From NCBI RefSeq assembly GCF_003633755.1, contig NZ_RBIL01000001.1, forward strand, positions 4,139,426 to 4,203,425: DNA of 64,000 bases, written 5' to 3'. Both the position numbers and the translations under genes were made by a program. This document shows, piece after piece, positions 21,977-32,001 of the stretch. The notes under the pieces are model-generated. The model did no database searches. It was not told the origin of the DNA and worked only from the letters and a program-made list of their open reading frames with translations. This DNA comes from Solirubrobacter pauli (GTDB taxonomy: Bacteria > Actinomycetota > Thermoleophilia > Solirubrobacterales > Solirubrobacteraceae). Positions within the stretch are counted from its first letter, which is position 1. The number at the start of each line of letters is the position of its first letter.

Positions 21977-22779
21977 CGGAAGCCGTCGAGGGACAGCAGC
22001 GCGCCCCGCTGCTGTCCCTGCGCGGGATCAACAAGAGCTTCGGCGCGGTGCACGTCCTCCGGGACGTGGACTTCGACGTCCGGCCTGGTGAGGTGACCGC
22101 GCTGGTCGGCGACAATGGCGCCGGCAAGTCCACTTTGATCAAGTGCATCGCGGGGATCCATCCCTTCGACGACGGCGAGCTCATCTTCGAGGGCAAGCCC
22201 GTCACGATCCACGGGCCGAAGGACGCGAACGCGCTGGGGATCGAGATCGTCTACCAGGACCTCGCGCTGTGCGACAACCTCGACGTTGTCCACAACATGT
22301 TCCTCGGGCGTGAGCTCAAGTCGGGCGTCACGCTGAACGAGACCGAGATGGAGAAGCGGGCGGGGGAGACCCTCAAGTCGCTGTCCGTCCGCACGCTCCG
22401 GTCGCTGCGTCAGAACGTGTCCTCGCTCTCGGGCGGTCAGCGCCAGACCGTGGCGATCGCGCGTTCGGTCCTGTGGAACTCGAAGGTCGTGATCCTCGAC
22501 GAGCCGACCGCGGCGTTGGGCGTCGCCCAGACCGAGCAGGTGCTCAACCTGGTGCGCCGGCTGGCGGACAACGGGCTCGGCGTCGTCTTGATCACGCACA
22601 ACATGAACGACGTCTTCCAGGTCGCGGACAGCATCGCGACGCTGTTCCTGGGCCAGATGGCCGCGCAGGTGCGGGCGAAGGACGTCAACAACACCCAGGT
22701 GATCGAGCTGATCACGGCGGGTCGCTCGGGTGAGCTCGGGCTCAAGCCGCGCGAAGCCGCCGAGGTGGGCGTCGTATGA
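21973..22779 (+). CDS. Sugar ABC transporter ATP-binding protein (single domain)
   Basis: ATG overlaps the stop of the binding protein. The 268-residue protein has one ATPase domain: Walker A GDNGAGKST, Q-loop VYQDLALCDNLD, signature LSGGQRQTV, Walker B VVILDEPTAALG and H-loop LITHNM. Classic XylG/RbsA proteins have two fused ATPase domains of about 500 residues; this is a single-domain form, so it probably works as a homodimer. Confidence 0.95.
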   Translation: MTEAVEGQQRAPLLSLRGINKSFGAVHVLRDVDFDVRPGEVTALVGDNGAGKSTLIKCIAGIHPFDDGELIFEGKPVTIHGPKDANALGIEIVYQDLALCDNLDVVHNMFLGRELKSGVTLNETEMEKRAGETLKSLSVRTLRSLRQNVSSLSGGQRQTVAIARSVLWNSKVVILDEPTAALGVAQTEQVLNLVRRLADNGLGVVLITHNMNDVFQVADSIATLFLGQMAAQVRAKDVNNTQVIELITAGRSGELGLKPREAAEVGVV

Positions 22780-25620: not shown

Positions 25621-26403
25621 CTAGCGCGAGATCCGCTGAGCGAACGCGCCTGCCAGACCTTTGTCCGCGAAGTGCCCGCGGCGGGCGAGCGTGGCCATCC
25701 GACGGCGGGTCACGGCGTCCACCAGACGACGCGGGAGCAGGCGGACGACGGCGTACGTGATCGTGCCCTCACGGGTCGTCGCGAGGTCGCGGGCGGGCTC
25801 GCCGAGCGCGGCGCGGACGAGCGTGCGGGCCGCGTCGGCCACGTTCTCGACGGGCACGGCGCCTTCGAGCGGGACACCCGCGGCCGTGGACTCCTTGTGG
25901 ATCGGCGTGCGGATGTAGCCGGGGTAGACGGTCGTGACGTCGATCCGGTCGCCCTCTTCGAGGCGCAGCAGGTCGCTGTACGCGACGACGCCACGCTTGG
26001 ACATGGTGTACGCGGTCGAGAACGGGACGGTCACGTGCGCGAGGCCGGACGCGACGTTGACGACGCGGCCGTGGGACTCGCGCAGCGCGGGCAGCGCGGC
26101 GCTCGTCACGCGCCAGGGGCCGACCAGGTTCACGTCCAGGACGGCGAGCGCGGGATCGTCGGGCGCCGCGGCCGCGCTCTGGGGCGTGCCGAGGCCGGCG
26201 TTGTTGATGAGGACGTCGAGCCCGCCGAGCCGCTCGACGGCTTGCGCCACCGCCGCGTCCACCGACGCCTGCGAGCGCACGTCGCACTCGATGTCCGCCC
26301 CGGCCAGGTCGAGGCCCACGACCGCGCAGCCGCGCGAGCGCAGCAGCGCGACGGTCGCGCTGCCGATCCCGCCGGCCGCGCCGGTGATGACGACTCGCTT
26401 CAT
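25621..26403 (-). CDS. Short-chain dehydrogenase/reductase
   Basis: The 260-residue classical SDR has TGAAGGIG (7-14) for the nucleotide, NNAG (67-70) and the catalytic triad Ser119 (NVASG), Tyr132 and Lys136 (YTMSK). It is coupled by a four-base overlap to the Baeyer-Villiger-type monooxygenase upstream. The natural reading is that it makes a ketone from an alcohol for the monooxygenase, or handles its product. The frame is also open upstream inside the monooxygenase, but the ATG at the overlap matches the SDR fold. Confidence 0.94.
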   Translation of the reverse strand: MKRVVITGAAGGIGSATVALLRSRGCAVVGLDLAGADIECDVRSQASVDAAVAQAVERLGGLDVLINNAGLGTPQSAAAAPDDPALAVLDVNLVGPWRVTSAALPALRESHGRVVNVASGLAHVTVPFSTAYTMSKRGVVAYSDLLRLEEGDRIDVTTVYPGYIRTPIHKESTAAGVPLEGAVPVENVADAARTLVRAALGEPARDLATTREGTITYAVVRLLPRRLVDAVTRRRMATLARRGHFADKGLAGAFAQRISR

Positions 26404-27821
26404 GTGATCACGTACTCCTCTTCCTTGAAGTGGGCGGTCCGCCGGCGGTAGCGCCAGGTCCAGTCGGGCCAGAGCGTCGGGTTGCCGCCGCTCGCGTCCT
26501 GGTACCAGCTCCGGCAGCCGGTGCTCCAGATCGTGCCCCGCATCCGCCGCTGGACCTCGGCGTGGAAGCGGGCCTCGGCCTCGGGGCGGACCTCGATCGT
26601 CGCGGCGCCCGTGCGCAGCGCGTCCAGCACGTAGGCGATCTGCGACTCGATCATGTAGACGACCGACGTGTGCCCGAGGCCGGTGTTCGGGCCCATCAGG
26701 ACGAACAGGTTCGGGAAGCCCGGGACGGTCACGCCCAGGTGCGCCCGCGGCGAGCCGTTCCACGCCTCGGCGAGCGTGCGGCCGCCCTGGTCGCGGACGA
26801 GCCGCCCGACCGGCATGTCGAGCACCTGGAAGCCCGTCCCGAAGATCAGCGCGTCGACCTCCAGCTCGCGGCCGCTGTCGAGGACCACCGAGTGCGCGCG
26901 CACCTCGCGCACGCCGTCGGTGATGAGCTCGACGTTCTCGCGCGCGAGTGCCGGATACCACTCGTTGGAGGGCAGGATGCGCTTGCAGCCGACGGTGTAG
27001 TCCGGTGTCGCCTTCGCGATCAGCTCTGGGTCCGTCAGCGCGGCCTGCATGTGCTTGCGGCCCGCGCGCTCGAGCAGCTTCATCGCGCCCGGCTGCTTGA
27101 CCATGCCCAGCACGAGCGCCTCGCGCAGCGCGTAGATGCCGCCACGCAGCGCGCGCTGCAGCGGCGGGAAGCGCCGGAAGAGGCGGCGCTCGAAGGCGCT
27201 GATCGGCCGCGCGCTGTGCGGCATCACCCACGGCGCGGTCCGCTGCAGGACGTAGAGCCGTTCGGCGTCCGGCGCGATCCGCGGCACGTATTGGATCGCC
27301 GACGCGCCCGTCCCGACGCTCGCCACGCGCAGGCTCTTCAGGTCCACGTCGTGATCCCACCGCGCGGAGTGCATCGTGATGCCGGCGAACGTGTCGAGCC
27401 CGGGGAACGCGGGGAGCTTGGGCTCGACGAGCGGGCCGGTGCCGGCGACGAGGTACTGCGCGCGCACCAGGCCGTCGGCGGTGTCGAGGTTCCAGCGCGA
27501 GCCGTCCCACTGCGCGCGCGTGACCTCGCAGCGCAGCTTGACCTTGTCCGCGACCCCCGCCGCCACGCGCTCCAGGTACGCGCGGATCTCCGGCTGGCGC
27601 GAGTAGGTGCGCGTCCAGTCCGGGTTGGGCGCGAACGAGAACGAGTACAGGTGCGAGGGGACGTCGCAGGCGCAGCCCGGGTACGTGTTGTAGTGCCACG
27701 TGCCGCCGACGCCGTCACCACGTTCGAGCACGACGAAGTCCTCGATCCCCGCGGGCCGCAGGCGCAGCGCCATCCCGAGGCCGGCGAAACCGCTGCCGAT
27801 GATCGCGATCGAGACGTCCAT
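26400..27821 (-). CDS. Flavin-containing Baeyer-Villiger-type monooxygenase
   Basis: The 473-residue protein has an FAD loop IIGSGFAGLG (8-17), the Baeyer-Villiger fingerprint FAGITMHSARWD (145-156, F-x-G-x3-H-x3-W-D) and an NADPH loop SVGTGASAIQ (168-177). BVMOs insert oxygen next to ketones using NADPH and O2, giving esters or lactones. It is divergent from a TetR gene over a 33-bp dyad and coupled to an SDR. The set resembles a regulated module for breaking down or modifying a hydrophobic ketone or alcohol. Confidence 0.94.
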   Translation of the reverse strand: MDVSIAIIGSGFAGLGMALRLRPAGIEDFVVLERGDGVGGTWHYNTYPGCACDVPSHLYSFSFAPNPDWTRTYSRQPEIRAYLERVAAGVADKVKLRCEVTRAQWDGSRWNLDTADGLVRAQYLVAGTGPLVEPKLPAFPGLDTFAGITMHSARWDHDVDLKSLRVASVGTGASAIQYVPRIAPDAERLYVLQRTAPWVMPHSARPISAFERRLFRRFPPLQRALRGGIYALREALVLGMVKQPGAMKLLERAGRKHMQAALTDPELIAKATPDYTVGCKRILPSNEWYPALARENVELITDGVREVRAHSVVLDSGRELEVDALIFGTGFQVLDMPVGRLVRDQGGRTLAEAWNGSPRAHLGVTVPGFPNLFVLMGPNTGLGHTSVVYMIESQIAYVLDALRTGAATIEVRPEAEARFHAEVQRRMRGTIWSTGCRSWYQDASGGNPTLWPDWTWRYRRRTAHFKEEEYVIT

Positions 27822-27825
27822 GGAC

Positions 27826-27858
27826 GGTTACATTGCCGTAACTTACGCCACTGTAACC
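27826..27858. promoter_or_regulatory. 33-bp near-perfect operator dyad between monooxygenase and tetR
   Basis: Two 16-bp half-sites flank a central C (27842): GGTTACATTGCCGTAA, and on the other strand GGTTACAGTGGCGTAA; 14 of 16 positions match. Each half holds two nested elements (GGTTAC and GTAA). The dyad fills the 50-bp gap between the divergent genes and is the obvious site for the TetR protein encoded at 27872. Confidence 0.85.
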
Positions 27859-27871
27859 TGACATTGGTCAC

Positions 27872-28405
27872 ATGCGCATGACCGCCGAGCAGCGCAGGGA
27901 GCAGCTTCTGGACGCGACGAAGGCGATCGTGCTCGAGCGCGGCTTCCACGCCGTGTCGATCGAGGCGGTCGCGCGCGCGGCGGGAATCACGCGCCCGGTC
28001 GTCTACGGGCACTTCGACGACCTCCGGGGACTGCTCGAAGCGCTCGTCGACCGCGAGGCGCTTCGTGCGCTGCGCCAGCTCCCCGAGACCTACGACGACC
28101 TGCTCGCCGCGCTGACCGCGTATCTGAGCGCCGTGCGCGACGACCCCGGCACGTGGCGGCTCGTGCTGATGCCGCAGGAGGGCGCGCCGCGGCTGCTCGG
28201 CGAGCGGATCGCGGCGGGGCGCGCGGCGGTGGTGGCGCGCCTGGCCGCCGCGCTGGGTCCCGACACCGGCCTGCCGGACCCGGAGCTGAGCGCCCACATG
28301 CTGCGCGCCTACGCCGACGAGGCCGCGCGGCTGGTCCTCGCGGGCTACGACGTCGACCGCATCCTCGCGCTCACGCGCCACACGCTCGCCAAGCTGTCCC
28401 GGTGA
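27872..28405 (+). CDS. TetR-family transcriptional regulator
   Basis: The 177-residue protein has an N-terminal HTH (about 8-55, FHAVSIEAVARAAGITRPVVYGHFDD) and a helical ligand-binding domain. It should repress itself with the MFS gene and the divergent monooxygenase-SDR pair through the intergenic dyad. Two ATGs (27872 and 27878) are possible starts. No Shine-Dalgarno is seen, so the mRNA may be leaderless. Confidence 0.94.
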   Translation: MRMTAEQRREQLLDATKAIVLERGFHAVSIEAVARAAGITRPVVYGHFDDLRGLLEALVDREALRALRQLPETYDDLLAALTAYLSAVRDDPGTWRLVLMPQEGAPRLLGERIAAGRAAVVARLAAALGPDTGLPDPELSAHMLRAYADEAARLVLAGYDVDRILALTRHTLAKLSR

Positions 28406-29613
28406 TCCTCCCCGACCTCGGCCTCCTGCGCAGGCGGCGTGACCTGCGGCTGCTCGTCGGCGGCTCGACGGTCTCGCTGATCGGCGCCGCGTTCACGCAG
28501 GTGGCGCTCACGATCCAGGTGTTCGCCCTGACGGACTCGTCGATCGCGGTCGGCCTGCTCGGCGTCGCGCAGTTCATCCCGATCATCGCGCTGGCGCTGA
28601 TCGGTGGCGCGCTGGCCGACGCGTTCGACCGGCGCAAGCTGATCTTCGGGGCCGAGCTGGCGTCGGCGTTCGTGAGCGCGGCGCTGCTCGTCAACGCGCT
28701 GCTGCCGTCGCCCCAGCTGTGGCTGCTGTACGTCGCCTCGACCCTGTTCGCGGCCGCCACCGCCGTGCTCCGCCCGCCGCTGGACGCGCTCCTGCCGCGC
28801 CTCGTCGAGCGCGACGAGCTCAAGGCGGCGAGCGCGATCAGCTGGTCGCTGATGAGCATCTCCGGGATCGTCGGGCCGGCGCTGGCGGGCCTCGTGATCG
28901 CGGGCGGTGGGGTGGAGGCCGCGTACGCGATCGACGTGGTGTCCTTCGTGGGCTCGCTGTCCGCGTTCGCGCTGATGCGCACGCCGCCTCCGCCGCCGGA
29001 CGCGGAGCCGCCGTCGCTGCGCGGCGTGATCGAGGGCGTCAAGTACGCGGGCTCGCGCCAGGAGATCCTCGGGTCCTACGTGATCGACATGCACGCGATG
29101 TTCTTCGGGATGCCGTTCGCGCTCTTCCCCGCGGTGGCGGAGCGCTACGGCGGGACGGAGGTCGTCGGCCTGCTGTGGGCGGCGCCCGCGGTCGGCGCGA
29201 TCGTCGCGATGCTGACGAGCGGCTGGAGCGTCCGCGTGCACCACAACGGCCGCGCGATCGTGTTCGCCGCCGCGGGCTGGGGCGGGTTCGTCGCGCTGTT
29301 CGGGTTCGCCGACGTGCTCTGGCTGGCGCTGCTCGCCCTTGCGCTCGCGGGAGCCGCCGACGCCATCAGCGGCATCTTCCGCGGCGCCCTCTGGAACGAG
29401 ACGATCCCGGACCGCCTGCGCGGGCGGCTGGCGGGCATGGAGATGATCTCGTGGTCCTCGGGGCCGCTGCTCGGCAATGCGCGCGCGGGCTTCGGCGCGT
29501 CGTGGCTCGGGCTCGGGCCGTCGATCGTCGCAGGCGGCGTCGTGGTGGTCGCCGGCTGCTTCGCGCTCGCCGCCGCGCTGCCGAAGTTCTGGAACTACGA
29601 CTCGAGAGCGTGA
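28402..29613 (+). CDS. MFS efflux transporter (EntS/MFS_3 type)
   Basis: The GTG start overlaps the tetR stop (GTGA). The 403-residue protein has about twelve membrane helices, the MFS motif ADAFDRRKLIF between helices 2 and 3, and the general layout of exporters of the enterobactin-exporter type. Coupling to tetR suggests that it exports the inducer or a product of the BVMO/SDR pathway. Confidence 0.92.
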   Translation: MILPDLGLLRRRRDLRLLVGGSTVSLIGAAFTQVALTIQVFALTDSSIAVGLLGVAQFIPIIALALIGGALADAFDRRKLIFGAELASAFVSAALLVNALLPSPQLWLLYVASTLFAAATAVLRPPLDALLPRLVERDELKAASAISWSLMSISGIVGPALAGLVIAGGGVEAAYAIDVVSFVGSLSAFALMRTPPPPPDAEPPSLRGVIEGVKYAGSRQEILGSYVIDMHAMFFGMPFALFPAVAERYGGTEVVGLLWAAPAVGAIVAMLTSGWSVRVHHNGRAIVFAAAGWGGFVALFGFADVLWLALLALALAGAADAISGIFRGALWNETIPDRLRGRLAGMEMISWSSGPLLGNARAGFGASWLGLGPSIVAGGVVVVAGCFALAAALPKFWNYDSRA

Positions 29614-30729: not shown

Positions 30730-31335
30730 CTATACGCAGCGGTCGCTGTCGGTGCGCGGCCCACCGCCGTACAGCTTCGCGGCCGCGCGGATGTCCGCGG
30801 GCGTCGGGACGCACCACAGCTCGCGATAGCGGGGCACGTCCTCGCTGAGCGTCGGGGCGCACCGCGTGTCGAACCACCCGGGCGACATGATCGTGCAGGT
30901 CGGGCTGTCCTTCACGTGCCGGAGCCCGAGCACGTGCCCGAGCTCGTGCGCGGCCACCCACACCGACAGCGACGTCGGCTTGCCCAGGCGCTCGCGCAGC
31001 ACGATCTCGCTCTTGCCGTCCTTCGGTCGGCCGATCGCGGTCGTGAACCCGAAGCAGCGCGGGCCGCACTCCCGGGTGAGCCGCGCGTCGTCCAGGCGCA
31101 CCAGCACGTCCGCGTCGCGCTCGTACTTGACGACGCGCACCTTGACGTCGGCGCCCGATCCCGTCCAGCGCTTGGCGGCGAAGATCAGCGAGTCGACCGC
31201 CCCCTGGGTGGGGGCGAAGACGTTCACCTCGCCCCGTGGCCAGCGCGGGTCAGGCGGCCCGTCGTCGCCCAGGGCGAGCGAGCCGACGCCGACGGCGATC
31301 GCGGTGGCGATGAGGAACAGGGCGAGGAGGCGCAC
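30730..31335 (-). CDS. Secreted or membrane-tethered matrixin-like metalloprotease
   Basis: The 201-residue protein has an N-terminal signal or anchor (residues 2-22) and a metzincin zinc site HELGHVLGLRH (130-140, HExxHxxGxxH), with Met-turn Met in CTIMSP. Four to six Cys suggest disulfides. There is no obvious propeptide cysteine switch. It is a close paralogue of the next gene, so the pair arose by tandem duplication. It acts outside the membrane; the substrate is unknown. Confidence 0.88.
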   Translation of the reverse strand: MRLLALFLIATAIAVGVGSLALGDDGPPDPRWPRGEVNVFAPTQGAVDSLIFAAKRWTGSGADVKVRVVKYERDADVLVRLDDARLTRECGPRCFGFTTAIGRPKDGKSEIVLRERLGKPTSLSVWVAAHELGHVLGLRHVKDSPTCTIMSPGWFDTRCAPTLSEDVPRYRELWCVPTPADIRAAAKLYGGGPRTDSDRCV

Positions 31336-31356: not shown

Positions 31357-32001
31357 CTAGCGGCAACGCGGATCGCGCAGCGTCGCGGCGCCGCCGTAGA
31401 TCGAGGCCGCCACGTCCACATCCGCCGGAGCGGGCACGCACGCCAGCTCGGACTGCGTCGGGATCGTCGCCGCCAGCGACGGCGCGCAGCGCGTGTCGAA
31501 CGCCCGCGGGGACATCACGGAGCAGTCGTGGCCGTCGCGGTGATGGAGGCCGAGGACGTGGCCGAGCTCGTGGGCCGCGACCCAGACCGACAGCGGACGT
31601 GGTGCGCCGCCGAGCGAGGAGCGCATGACGATCTCGCTGCTGCCGTCGCCGGGACGGCCGATCGAGGTGCTGTAGCCGAGGCAGTCGCGCCCGCAGAGGT
31701 CCAGCAGGCGCGCGTCGTCGCGGCGGACGATCACGTCGGCCTGGCGCTCGTCACGGACGACGCGGATGTCGACCTTGGCGCCGGACCGCGTCCAGCGCTC
31801 CGCGGCGACGAGCATGGTGCCGGTCATCCCGCTGGCGTCGTAGACGTGGACGACGCCGTCGGGCCAGCGGTGGTCGGTGGGGCCGGCCACCGCGGTGTAC
31901 ATCCGGGGGGCCAGGAGGAGGGTGAGGAGGGCGACGAGGCCGAGGCACGCGAGTGCGCGCACAGGGCGTGGCCGCTCGAAGACATGAGCCGATGCACGCA
32001 C
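31357..32001 (-). CDS. Secreted or membrane-tethered matrixin-like metalloprotease (paralogue)
   Basis: The 214-residue protein has a longer cytosolic N terminus before a membrane helix (about 15-32) and the zinc site HELGHVLGLHH (144-154), with Met-turn HDCSVMSP. Core order and Cys positions match the neighbour downstream. A GTG start is used; later in-frame starts are possible. The pair is probably co-transcribed, 21 bp apart. Confidence 0.87.
   Translation of the reverse strand: MRASAHVFERPRPVRALACLGLVALLTLLLAPRMYTAVAGPTDHRWPDGVVHVYDASGMTGTMLVAAERWTRSGAKVDIRVVRDERQADVIVRRDDARLLDLCGRDCLGYSTSIGRPGDGSSEIVMRSSLGGAPRPLSVWVAAHELGHVLGLHHRDGHDCSVMSPRAFDTRCAPSLAATIPTQSELACVPAPADVDVAASIYGGAATLRDPRCR

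What the first reader, a model, noticed from the sequence alone, without database searches (positions are those of the whole stretch)
27822..27871. 33-bp near-perfect operator in the BVMO/TetR divergent promoter
Two 16-bp halves match at 14 positions about a central base and contain nested GGTTAC and GTAA elements, giving one of the clearest operators in the window. It makes the monooxygenase-SDR and TetR-MFS pairs a single inducible module, probably for a hydrophobic ketone or alcohol.
Basis: partly seen in the sequence, partly recalled or inferred. Interest (0 to 1): 0.6.

Follow-up and report, generated by a model that had tools for sequence, protein, structure and literature searches.

The report
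Tandem TetR operator controlling BVMO genes
The short DNA between a Baeyer-Villiger-type monooxygenase gene and its TetR regulator in a soil actinobacterium holds two side-by-side copies of a small regulator-binding site, and a search for that pattern alone in other bacteria lands mostly on fatty-acid desaturase and other membrane-linked genes, hinting at an old shared control code.

Summary
The dyad is real (27826-27841/27843-27858, 14 of 16 paired) inside a 50-bp divergent gap. As a bare dyad it is not rare in this GC-rich window (2 found, 1.27 expected); conservation is the evidence. It is better read as two head-to-tail 14-bp palindromes, TTAC-N6-GTAA, at 15-bp pitch, presumably one TetR dimer each. 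Of 59 TetR homologues found by protein search, 16 of 19 divergent from a BVMO carry the array (7 of 7 in the genus, 9 of 12 outside) against 2 of 39 others. In one rearranged locus it stands before the BVMO. Some relatives have three units. Two related TetR groups with other recognition helices carry other palindromes at 14-bp pitch. A DNA-only scan of 84,980 species genomes gave 51 loci: 24 at fatty-acid desaturases or their reductase partner, 11 at HlyIII genes, 6 at BVMO, 10 unassigned; no control scan was possible. Closest fold: FasR, an acyl-CoA sensor. Most likely: cooperative repression of both divergent operons, relieved by a fatty-acyl-like ligand (repression, cooperativity and ligand are inferred). 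The patterns used found no second site in this genome. New variant of a known kind.

The parts
27828..27841 (.). operator unit 1, TTAC-N6-GTAA (TTACATTGCCGTAA)
   Evidence: 8 of 8 defined bases; conserved in relatives
27843..27856 (.). operator unit 2, TTAC-N6-GTAA (TTACGCCACTGTAA), 15 bp from unit 1
   Evidence: 8 of 8 defined bases; TTAC, gap 6, pitch 15 is the best of the scanned half-sites, gaps and pitches in 12 protein-found loci
27826..27858 (.). the 33-bp dyad as reported, a by-product of the two units plus flanking GG/CC
27839..27844 (-). presumed -10 hexamer of the BVMO promoter (TAAGTT read on the - strand), in the array centre
   Evidence: 10 of 20 BVMO loci have a -35 of at least 5/6 TTGACA 16-18 bp upstream of it; the window itself only 3/6
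26400..27821 (-). flavin monooxygenase with type I BVMO fingerprint FAGITMHSARWD (residue 145), 473 aa
   Evidence: Pfam Pyr_redox_3 and FMO-like; fingerprint and Rossmann motifs (motif definitions recalled)
25621..26403 (-). short-chain dehydrogenase, start overlaps BVMO stop
   Evidence: Pfam adh_short 2.4e-37; TGAAGGIG, NNAG, YTMSK motifs (motif definitions recalled)
27872..28405 (+). TetR-family regulator, 177 aa; recognition helix TRPVVYGHF from residue 40
   Evidence: Pfam TetR_N 5.2e-12; nearest PDB fold FasR; helix position
28402..29613 (+). MFS transporter, GTG start overlaps TetR stop
   Evidence: Pfam MFS_3 6.7e-29; NCBIfam EntS and 2A0121 matched below their cut-offs

Best explanation
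The intergenic region is a two-unit tandem operator for the adjacent TetR protein. Each unit, TTAC-N6-GTAA, has its half-sites one helical turn apart and should take one TetR dimer; the second unit starts 15 bp on, so two dimers sit side by side. Bound dimers cover the presumed -10 region of the BVMO-SDR promoter and the start region of TetR-MFS, and so repress both operons. A hydrophobic, probably fatty-acyl-like, molecule releases the protein. Shown here: anatomy, conservation, presence before the BVMO when gene order differs, association with the recognition helix, promoter overlap in relatives. Inferred: one dimer per unit, cooperativity, repression rather than activation, ligand class.
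For: Protein-only search: array (score 13 or more of 16) upstream of TetR in 16 of 19 BVMO-divergent homologues (7 of 7 in the genus, 9 of 12 outside) against 2 of 39 without a BVMO homologue in the stretch held; Fisher p 1.6e-9 with near-copies left in. TetRs with helix [TS]RP[IVL]VYx[HQ]F: 18 of 21 with the array; all others 0 of 38 (this helix class was drawn after seeing the table). Shuffled upstream regions never passed 12 of 16 in 3600. Scan over all 4-mer half-sites, gaps 2-10 and pitches 11-21: TTAC, gap 6, pitch 15 is best in 12 loci, 183 of 192, maximum of 12 shuffles 144. In G084 BVMO and TetR are codirectional and a perfect array stands before the BVMO. Related groups: TKPVVYDFF with TACG-N4-CGTA at 14-bp pitch, 110 of 112 against 92; IARTVIYSHF with TACA-N4-TGTA at 14-bp pitch, 80 of 80 against 65. 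A -35 box 16-18 bp from the array centre in 10 of 20 BVMO loci, against about 0.5% of 6000 random draws. Divergent TetRs with gaps under 200 bp usually repress the neighbour (PMC3511530, passages).
Against: No binding data. The window's own -35 is poor, 3 of 6. Dyads of this quality are at chance level window-wide. Three BVMO-divergent pairs lack the standard array (L021, L132, L141). L024 and L027 have a fitting helix but no array upstream. Of the 6 phylum-level homologues outside the class (L113-L118) none has the array upstream, L118 with a fitting desaturase-type helix included. Two TetR homologues near unassigned sites, L075 and L103, have other helices. 10 of 51 scanned sites lie by none of the recurring genes. 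FasR, the nearest fold, is an activator, and its published 25-mer does not hold the unit.
Confidence: 0.8

Rival explanations
1. One composite operator centred on 27842, bound by interleaved dimers on opposite faces as in QacR or Rv0078/EthR2 (7-bp stagger), not one dimer per unit.
For: Rv0078 has DNA contacts by Thr47, Arg48 and Tyr52 and an operator holding TTTAC and GTAAC, with two dimers staggered by 7 bp (PMC6016246, section 8). Half of the 15-bp pitch is 7.5 bp.
Against: Three-unit arrays in L039, L055, L056, L057, L059, L060 (third unit 6-8 of 8 bases) and 14-bp-pitch arrays in other groups show a modular unit. No TTAC/GTAA half-sites stand where a dimer centred on 27842 would need them (sequence). 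The Rv0078 probes score at most 4-5 of 8 for the unit.
Confidence: 0.12
2. TetR acts here as an activator or has mixed effects, as FasR does on fas-acpS.
For: FasR is the best NCBIfam model (52.7 bits) and the top PDB fold match, and is an activator at three inverted repeats (PMC7382501, passages).
Against: The array centre covers the presumed -10 box in relatives, which fits repression; the FasR membership cut-off of 330 bits is far from met.
Confidence: 0.08
3. The conserved sequence is a pair of back-to-back promoter elements (TAACTT/TAAGTT), not a protein-binding operator.
For: The centre resembles a -10 hexamer in both directions.
Against: The outer half-sites and the 15-bp register are conserved too and the pattern goes with the recognition helix; third units lie outside the central element.
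Confidence: 0.03
4. Chance dyad without function.
For: Dyads of this quality are expected about once per window.
Against: Conservation across genera and at a rearranged locus.
Confidence: 0.01

Closest known systems
EthR / ethA (Mycobacterium tuberculosis)
   Same: TetR repressor divergent from a monooxygenase; short gap (75 bp in PMC3511530, passages); EthR binds as a homo-octamer (PMC5403819, passages). That EthA is a BVMO is recalled.
   Different: EthR's 55-bp operator is described as long direct repeats plus inverted repeats (PMC9210681, passages), not TTAC-N6-GTAA units; EthR is not named among the 60 PDB sequence matches shown of 102.
Rv0078 (EthR2) / Rv0077c
   Same: Divergent pair 61 bp apart; Thr-Arg-...-Tyr contacts; operator with TTTAC and GTAAC; two dimers; fatty-acid-like density in the pocket (PMC6016246, passages and section 8). 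Among the first fold matches.
   Different: 7-bp stagger on a 21-bp site, not 15-bp head-to-tail units.
FasR (mycobacterial)
   Same: Best NCBIfam model and top PDB fold; binds three inverted repeats; released by acyl-CoA of C16 or more.
   Different: Score far below the family cut-off; activator; published 25-mer lacks the unit.
SCO7222 / SCO7223 (Streptomyces coelicolor)
   Same: TetR divergent from a monooxygenase gene, represses it, three perfect palindromes in the gap (PMC3511530, passages).
   Different: Palindrome TGGAACGNCGTTCCA; three discrete protected regions rather than an abutting array.
QacR, CgmR, RolR multi-dimer operators
   Same: Pairs of TetR-family dimers on 28-32 bp operators (PMC9210681, passages).
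   Different: Different sequences; the passage seen mentions no variable number of units.

Membership tests
TetR family of regulators | N-terminal TetR helix-turn-helix | tested here: met
   PF00440 E 5.2e-12, 45.8 bits, cut-off 24; all-helical model whose top PDB matches are TetR-family regulators
TetR family of regulators | specific binding of the palindromic site and ligand release | not testable with these tools
   needs gel shift or footprint
FasR | NCBIfam NF053731 cut-off 330 bits | tested here: not met
   52.7 bits
FasR | shared operator sequence | tested here: not met
   the FasR 25-mer scores at most 4 of 8 for the unit; the full fas promoter was not examined
EthR/EthA system | TetR divergent from a BVMO with a multi-dimer operator | tested here: inconclusive
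   divergence and BVMO fingerprint met; dimer number untested
EthR/EthA system | EthR sequence homology beyond the general family | tested here: inconclusive
   EthR not named among the 60 matches shown of 102
EthR2 (Rv0078) | two dimers staggered by 7 bp on a 21-bp site | tested here: not met
   the repeat here is 15 bp; the Rv0078 probes do not hold the unit pair; dimer placement itself untested
Type I Baeyer-Villiger monooxygenase (enzyme) | FxGxxxHxxxW[PD] fingerprint and Rossmann motifs | tested here: met
   FAGITMHSARWD at 145, GSGFAG at 9, GTGASA at 170 (motif recalled)
Type I Baeyer-Villiger monooxygenase (enzyme) | oxidation of a ketone to an ester | not testable with these tools
   needs an enzyme assay

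The most novel reading that the evidence does not exclude
One ancient TetR operator code, a head-to-tail lattice of TTAC-N6-GTAA units at 15-bp pitch with two or more copies, governs membrane-lipid genes (several kinds of desaturase gene set, HlyIII/PAQR) across Actinomycetota and some Myxococcota. The BVMO module is a branch, and half-site and pitch (15 to 14 bp) changed together with the recognition helix in paralogues, giving natural orthogonal repressor-operator pairs whose copy number tunes cooperativity.
Probability: 0.45. Interest if true: 0.65.

Novelty: new variant of a known kind. Interest (0 to 1): 0.5.

Why it matters
It replaces a single-dyad reading by a modular one with countable units that can be tested by stoichiometry. 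It gives a bioinformatic handle, one 29-bp pattern, for finding candidate lipid-control sites across Actinomycetota, and a ligand hypothesis (acyl-CoA or fatty acid) for a BVMO regulator. The paralogue series, in which half-site, pitch and recognition helix differ together, would help decode TetR-family DNA recognition.

Tried and rejected
Dyad significance in the whole window: not significant on its own (2 seen, 1.27 expected).

Own-genome regulon from the half-site: no excess over the reversed control. The one other exact TTAC-N6-GTAAC place, G000:C2:2497781, has a single unit and no TetR, BVMO or desaturase homologue in the 3 kb fetched.

Arrays with other half-sites upstream of TetRs lacking the standard one, tested locus by locus (generic score, 21 loci): none clearly above shuffles. 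The group-wise test (only 12 shuffles per group) found two groups (B and C) and failed for F (87 against 89) and G (100 against 102); D (92 against 91) and E (41 against 38) were marginal. The GTAGCTAC-centred variant in group F therefore rests on reading by eye.

TetR homologues in the rest of the phylum: 9 of 396 genomes at E 1e-18 or better; the 6 outside the class carry no array upstream.

MadR as the relative: its motif TCTGTGN7GT differs (PMC8872791, passages). FasR operator as the same code: not found in its 25-mer. AtsR: different motif. PMC4482099: no hits for the terms looked up. fasO of Corynebacterium: operator letters not given in the passages seen.

Desaturase-linked and BVMO-linked TetRs as one close clade: not supported; the desaturase-type TetRs (12 rows, one of them, L118, so labelled by its helix alone) form their own clade (100/100) on a long branch, so the shared operator is either ancient or convergent.

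Paper searches: all 10 used. In one search (exact array-core strings) 25 of 93 papers were listed and I followed one, PMC6016246. I saw no paper in these listings that describes this tandem array with desaturase or BVMO genes, but most lists were cut and most subscription papers are not held.

Full report
WHAT IS THERE. The window lies in a 7.1-Mb genome (G000). Genomes of its genus (G033, G061, G012, G048) have contig lengths equal to records titled Solirubrobacter (L077, L082, L086, L109), so the genus is very probably Solirubrobacter. The BVMO gene (26400-27821, - strand) and the TetR gene (27872-28405, + strand) are divergent with 50 bp between them; SDR and MFS follow each with overlapping stop and start codons. 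The dyad is confirmed. Taken alone it is no rarer than chance in so GC-rich a window, so its meaning rests on comparison.

ANATOMY. The arms GGTTACATTGCCGTAA and, on the other strand, GGTTACAGTGGCGTAA hide a simpler order: TTAC-N6-GTAA, one base, TTAC-N6-GTAA. The halves of each unit are 10 bp apart, one turn, as a dimer needs; the inner halves of neighbouring units are only 5 bp apart. Because each unit is a palindrome, two in tandem make one long dyad with an axis at 27842.

CONSERVATION. A protein search with the TetR in 101 genomes of the family gave 59 matches in 39 genomes at E 1e-20 or better. I examined all 59: 19 are divergent from a BVMO homologue, and 16 of these carry the array (7 of 7 in the genus, 9 of 12 outside); 39 show no BVMO homologue in the stretch held, some of them on short contigs, and 2 of these carry it; 1 has another arrangement (Fisher p 1.6e-9). 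Near-copies were not removed; G012 and G048 appear to be the same strain by title. The other arrangement, G084, has BVMO and TetR in one direction and a perfect array before the BVMO. One further TetR without BVMO, L015, has an array about 0.9 kb upstream, before the preceding gene. The three misses have the helix TRPV[VI]YD[LQ]F; two of them (and L143) show GTNAC-N6-GTAGCTAC-N6-GTTAC and the third a weaker form (by eye; the group-wise scan did not support this group). In a DNA-only search of 399 class genomes with up to 2 mismatches, 44 places in 31 genomes matched (three-unit arrays count twice) against 16 places in 14 genomes for the reversed pattern (counted by me from the table).

UNITS AND PITCH. 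A scan over all 256 half-sites, gaps 2-10 and pitches 11-21 picked TTAC, gap 6, pitch 15 in 12 loci (12 of the 21 helix-class members; near-copies and some others left out): 183 of 192, maximum of 12 shuffles 144. Three units occur in L039, L055, L056, L057, L059 and L060, the weakest unit with 6 or 7 of 8 bases. Two related groups show arrays of other palindromes at 14-bp pitch, with two or three units. Groups F and G gave nothing above shuffles; D and E were marginal.

PROMOTER. In 20 BVMO loci scored (some found by DNA pattern), 10 have a -35 box with at least 5 of 6 TTGACA bases 16-18 bp upstream of the array's central hexamer (TAASTT or TAGGTT in those ten); about 0.5% of 6000 random draws reach that. 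The window itself has only 3 of 6, so its promoter is inferred from relatives.

THE WIDER PATTERN. One exact pattern scan of 84,980 species genomes (TTACN5CGTAASTTACGN5GTAA) gave 51 stretches. By the gene starting within 200 bp and reading away from the site: FA_desaturase 18, its FAD/2Fe-2S reductase partner 3 (in L092 only the reductase is on the stretch), FA_desaturase_2 (acyl-ACP type) 3, HlyIII 11 (L065 weak, E 1e-9), BVMO 6, none of these 10 (Pfam of representatives; similarity; the tally is mine). The representatives were chosen from these same loci. A TetR homologue lies in 12 of the 21 FA_desaturase or reductase loci, and in L067. The six BVMO loci are all titled Solirubrobacter or Solirubrobacterales. 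Records of one genus (Bifidobacterium, Actinotignum, Solirubrobacter) are not independent.

REGULATOR. The TetR's best NCBIfam model is FasR at 52.7 bits (cut-off 330). In a mixed set of 10 BVMO-linked and desaturase-linked TetRs, FasR and six other models match all 10 members; the lowest E-value is FasR's, 4.1e-34. The AlphaFold model (mean pLDDT 88.9) has FasR chains at the top of the PDB list, with Bacillus FadR, EthR2 and DesT in the first 50. Recognition helix: BVMO group mostly TRP[IV]VYGHF and near forms, desaturase group SKP[VI][VIL]Y[EQ]HF; TetR homologues near two unassigned sites, L075 and L103, have other helices. In Rv0078 Thr47, Arg48 and Tyr52 contact DNA, Arg48 a guanine (PMC6016246, section 8 read); our T40, R41 and Y45 have the same spacing, an inference as I did not align the Rv0078 sequence. 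A tree of 74 TetRs puts the desaturase-type ones in a clade of their own (100/100) and the BVMO group as several branches among the rest, rooted at the midpoint and with long-branch warnings.

MECHANISM. Most likely two TetR dimers bind side by side and occlude both promoters; a fatty-acyl-like ligand releases them. Steps shown: anatomy, conservation, association with the recognition helix, promoter overlap in relatives. Steps inferred: occupancy, cooperativity, sign of regulation, ligand.

MODULE. BVMO, SDR, TetR and MFS are together in 6 of 7 genus genomes, the MFS of G012 and G048 reading in two frames; G072 shows no MFS match and only a 28-residue SDR match. Outside the genus, in 11 loci with wider DNA (L074 and L150-L159), an SDR follows the BVMO in 7 and the MFS is found in none; L074 ends about 260 bases after the TetR.

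PAPERS. PMC6016246: passages and section 8. PMC7382501, PMC7652896, PMC8872791, PMC9210681, PMC5403819, PMC5895659, PMC3511530, PMC6460773, PMC8634040: passages only. PMC4482099: look-up without hits. Others: search listings only.

Noticed in passing
window 21988-22020: A second 16-bp-arm dyad with 14 of 16 matches and one central base; at the level expected by chance.
   Followed up: no
window 30730-31335 and 31357-32001 (- strand): Two adjacent similar small proteins, both with a zinc-protease-like HELGHVLGL motif, look like a tandem duplication (read from the ORF list).
   Followed up: no
L004/L005/L086/L109: The MFS gene matches in two frames, residues 18-241 and 242-402, in what appears by title to be one strain sequenced twice.
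   Followed up: partly
L149 (G072) 2695-2778: Only a 28-residue SDR match stands beyond the BVMO, and no MFS match: the module may have decayed or been replaced here.
   Followed up: partly
L136, L145, L148; L127, L128, L130, L023, L131: Related TetRs carry two to three abutting palindromes at 14-bp pitch, CTAC-N6-GTAG/C type and GTAC-N6-GTAT/C type.
   Followed up: partly
L066, L079, L080, L105 (Actinotignum): Three-unit arrays, one pitch of 16 bp, between a biotin/lipoate-ligase-like gene (L105, Pfam) and a gene pair that looks like an ABC transporter (by eye).
   Followed up: partly
L044, L045: Array-like sites (2 and 1 mismatches) by AurF-type oxygenase genes in G039 and G021.
   Followed up: partly
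L122, L123: BVMO genes with a diverged array but no TetR homologue in the 6 kb held; L123 has a GntR-family gene instead.
   Followed up: partly
L016 2127-2155: A second array-like pair lies downstream of the TetR in G015.
   Followed up: no
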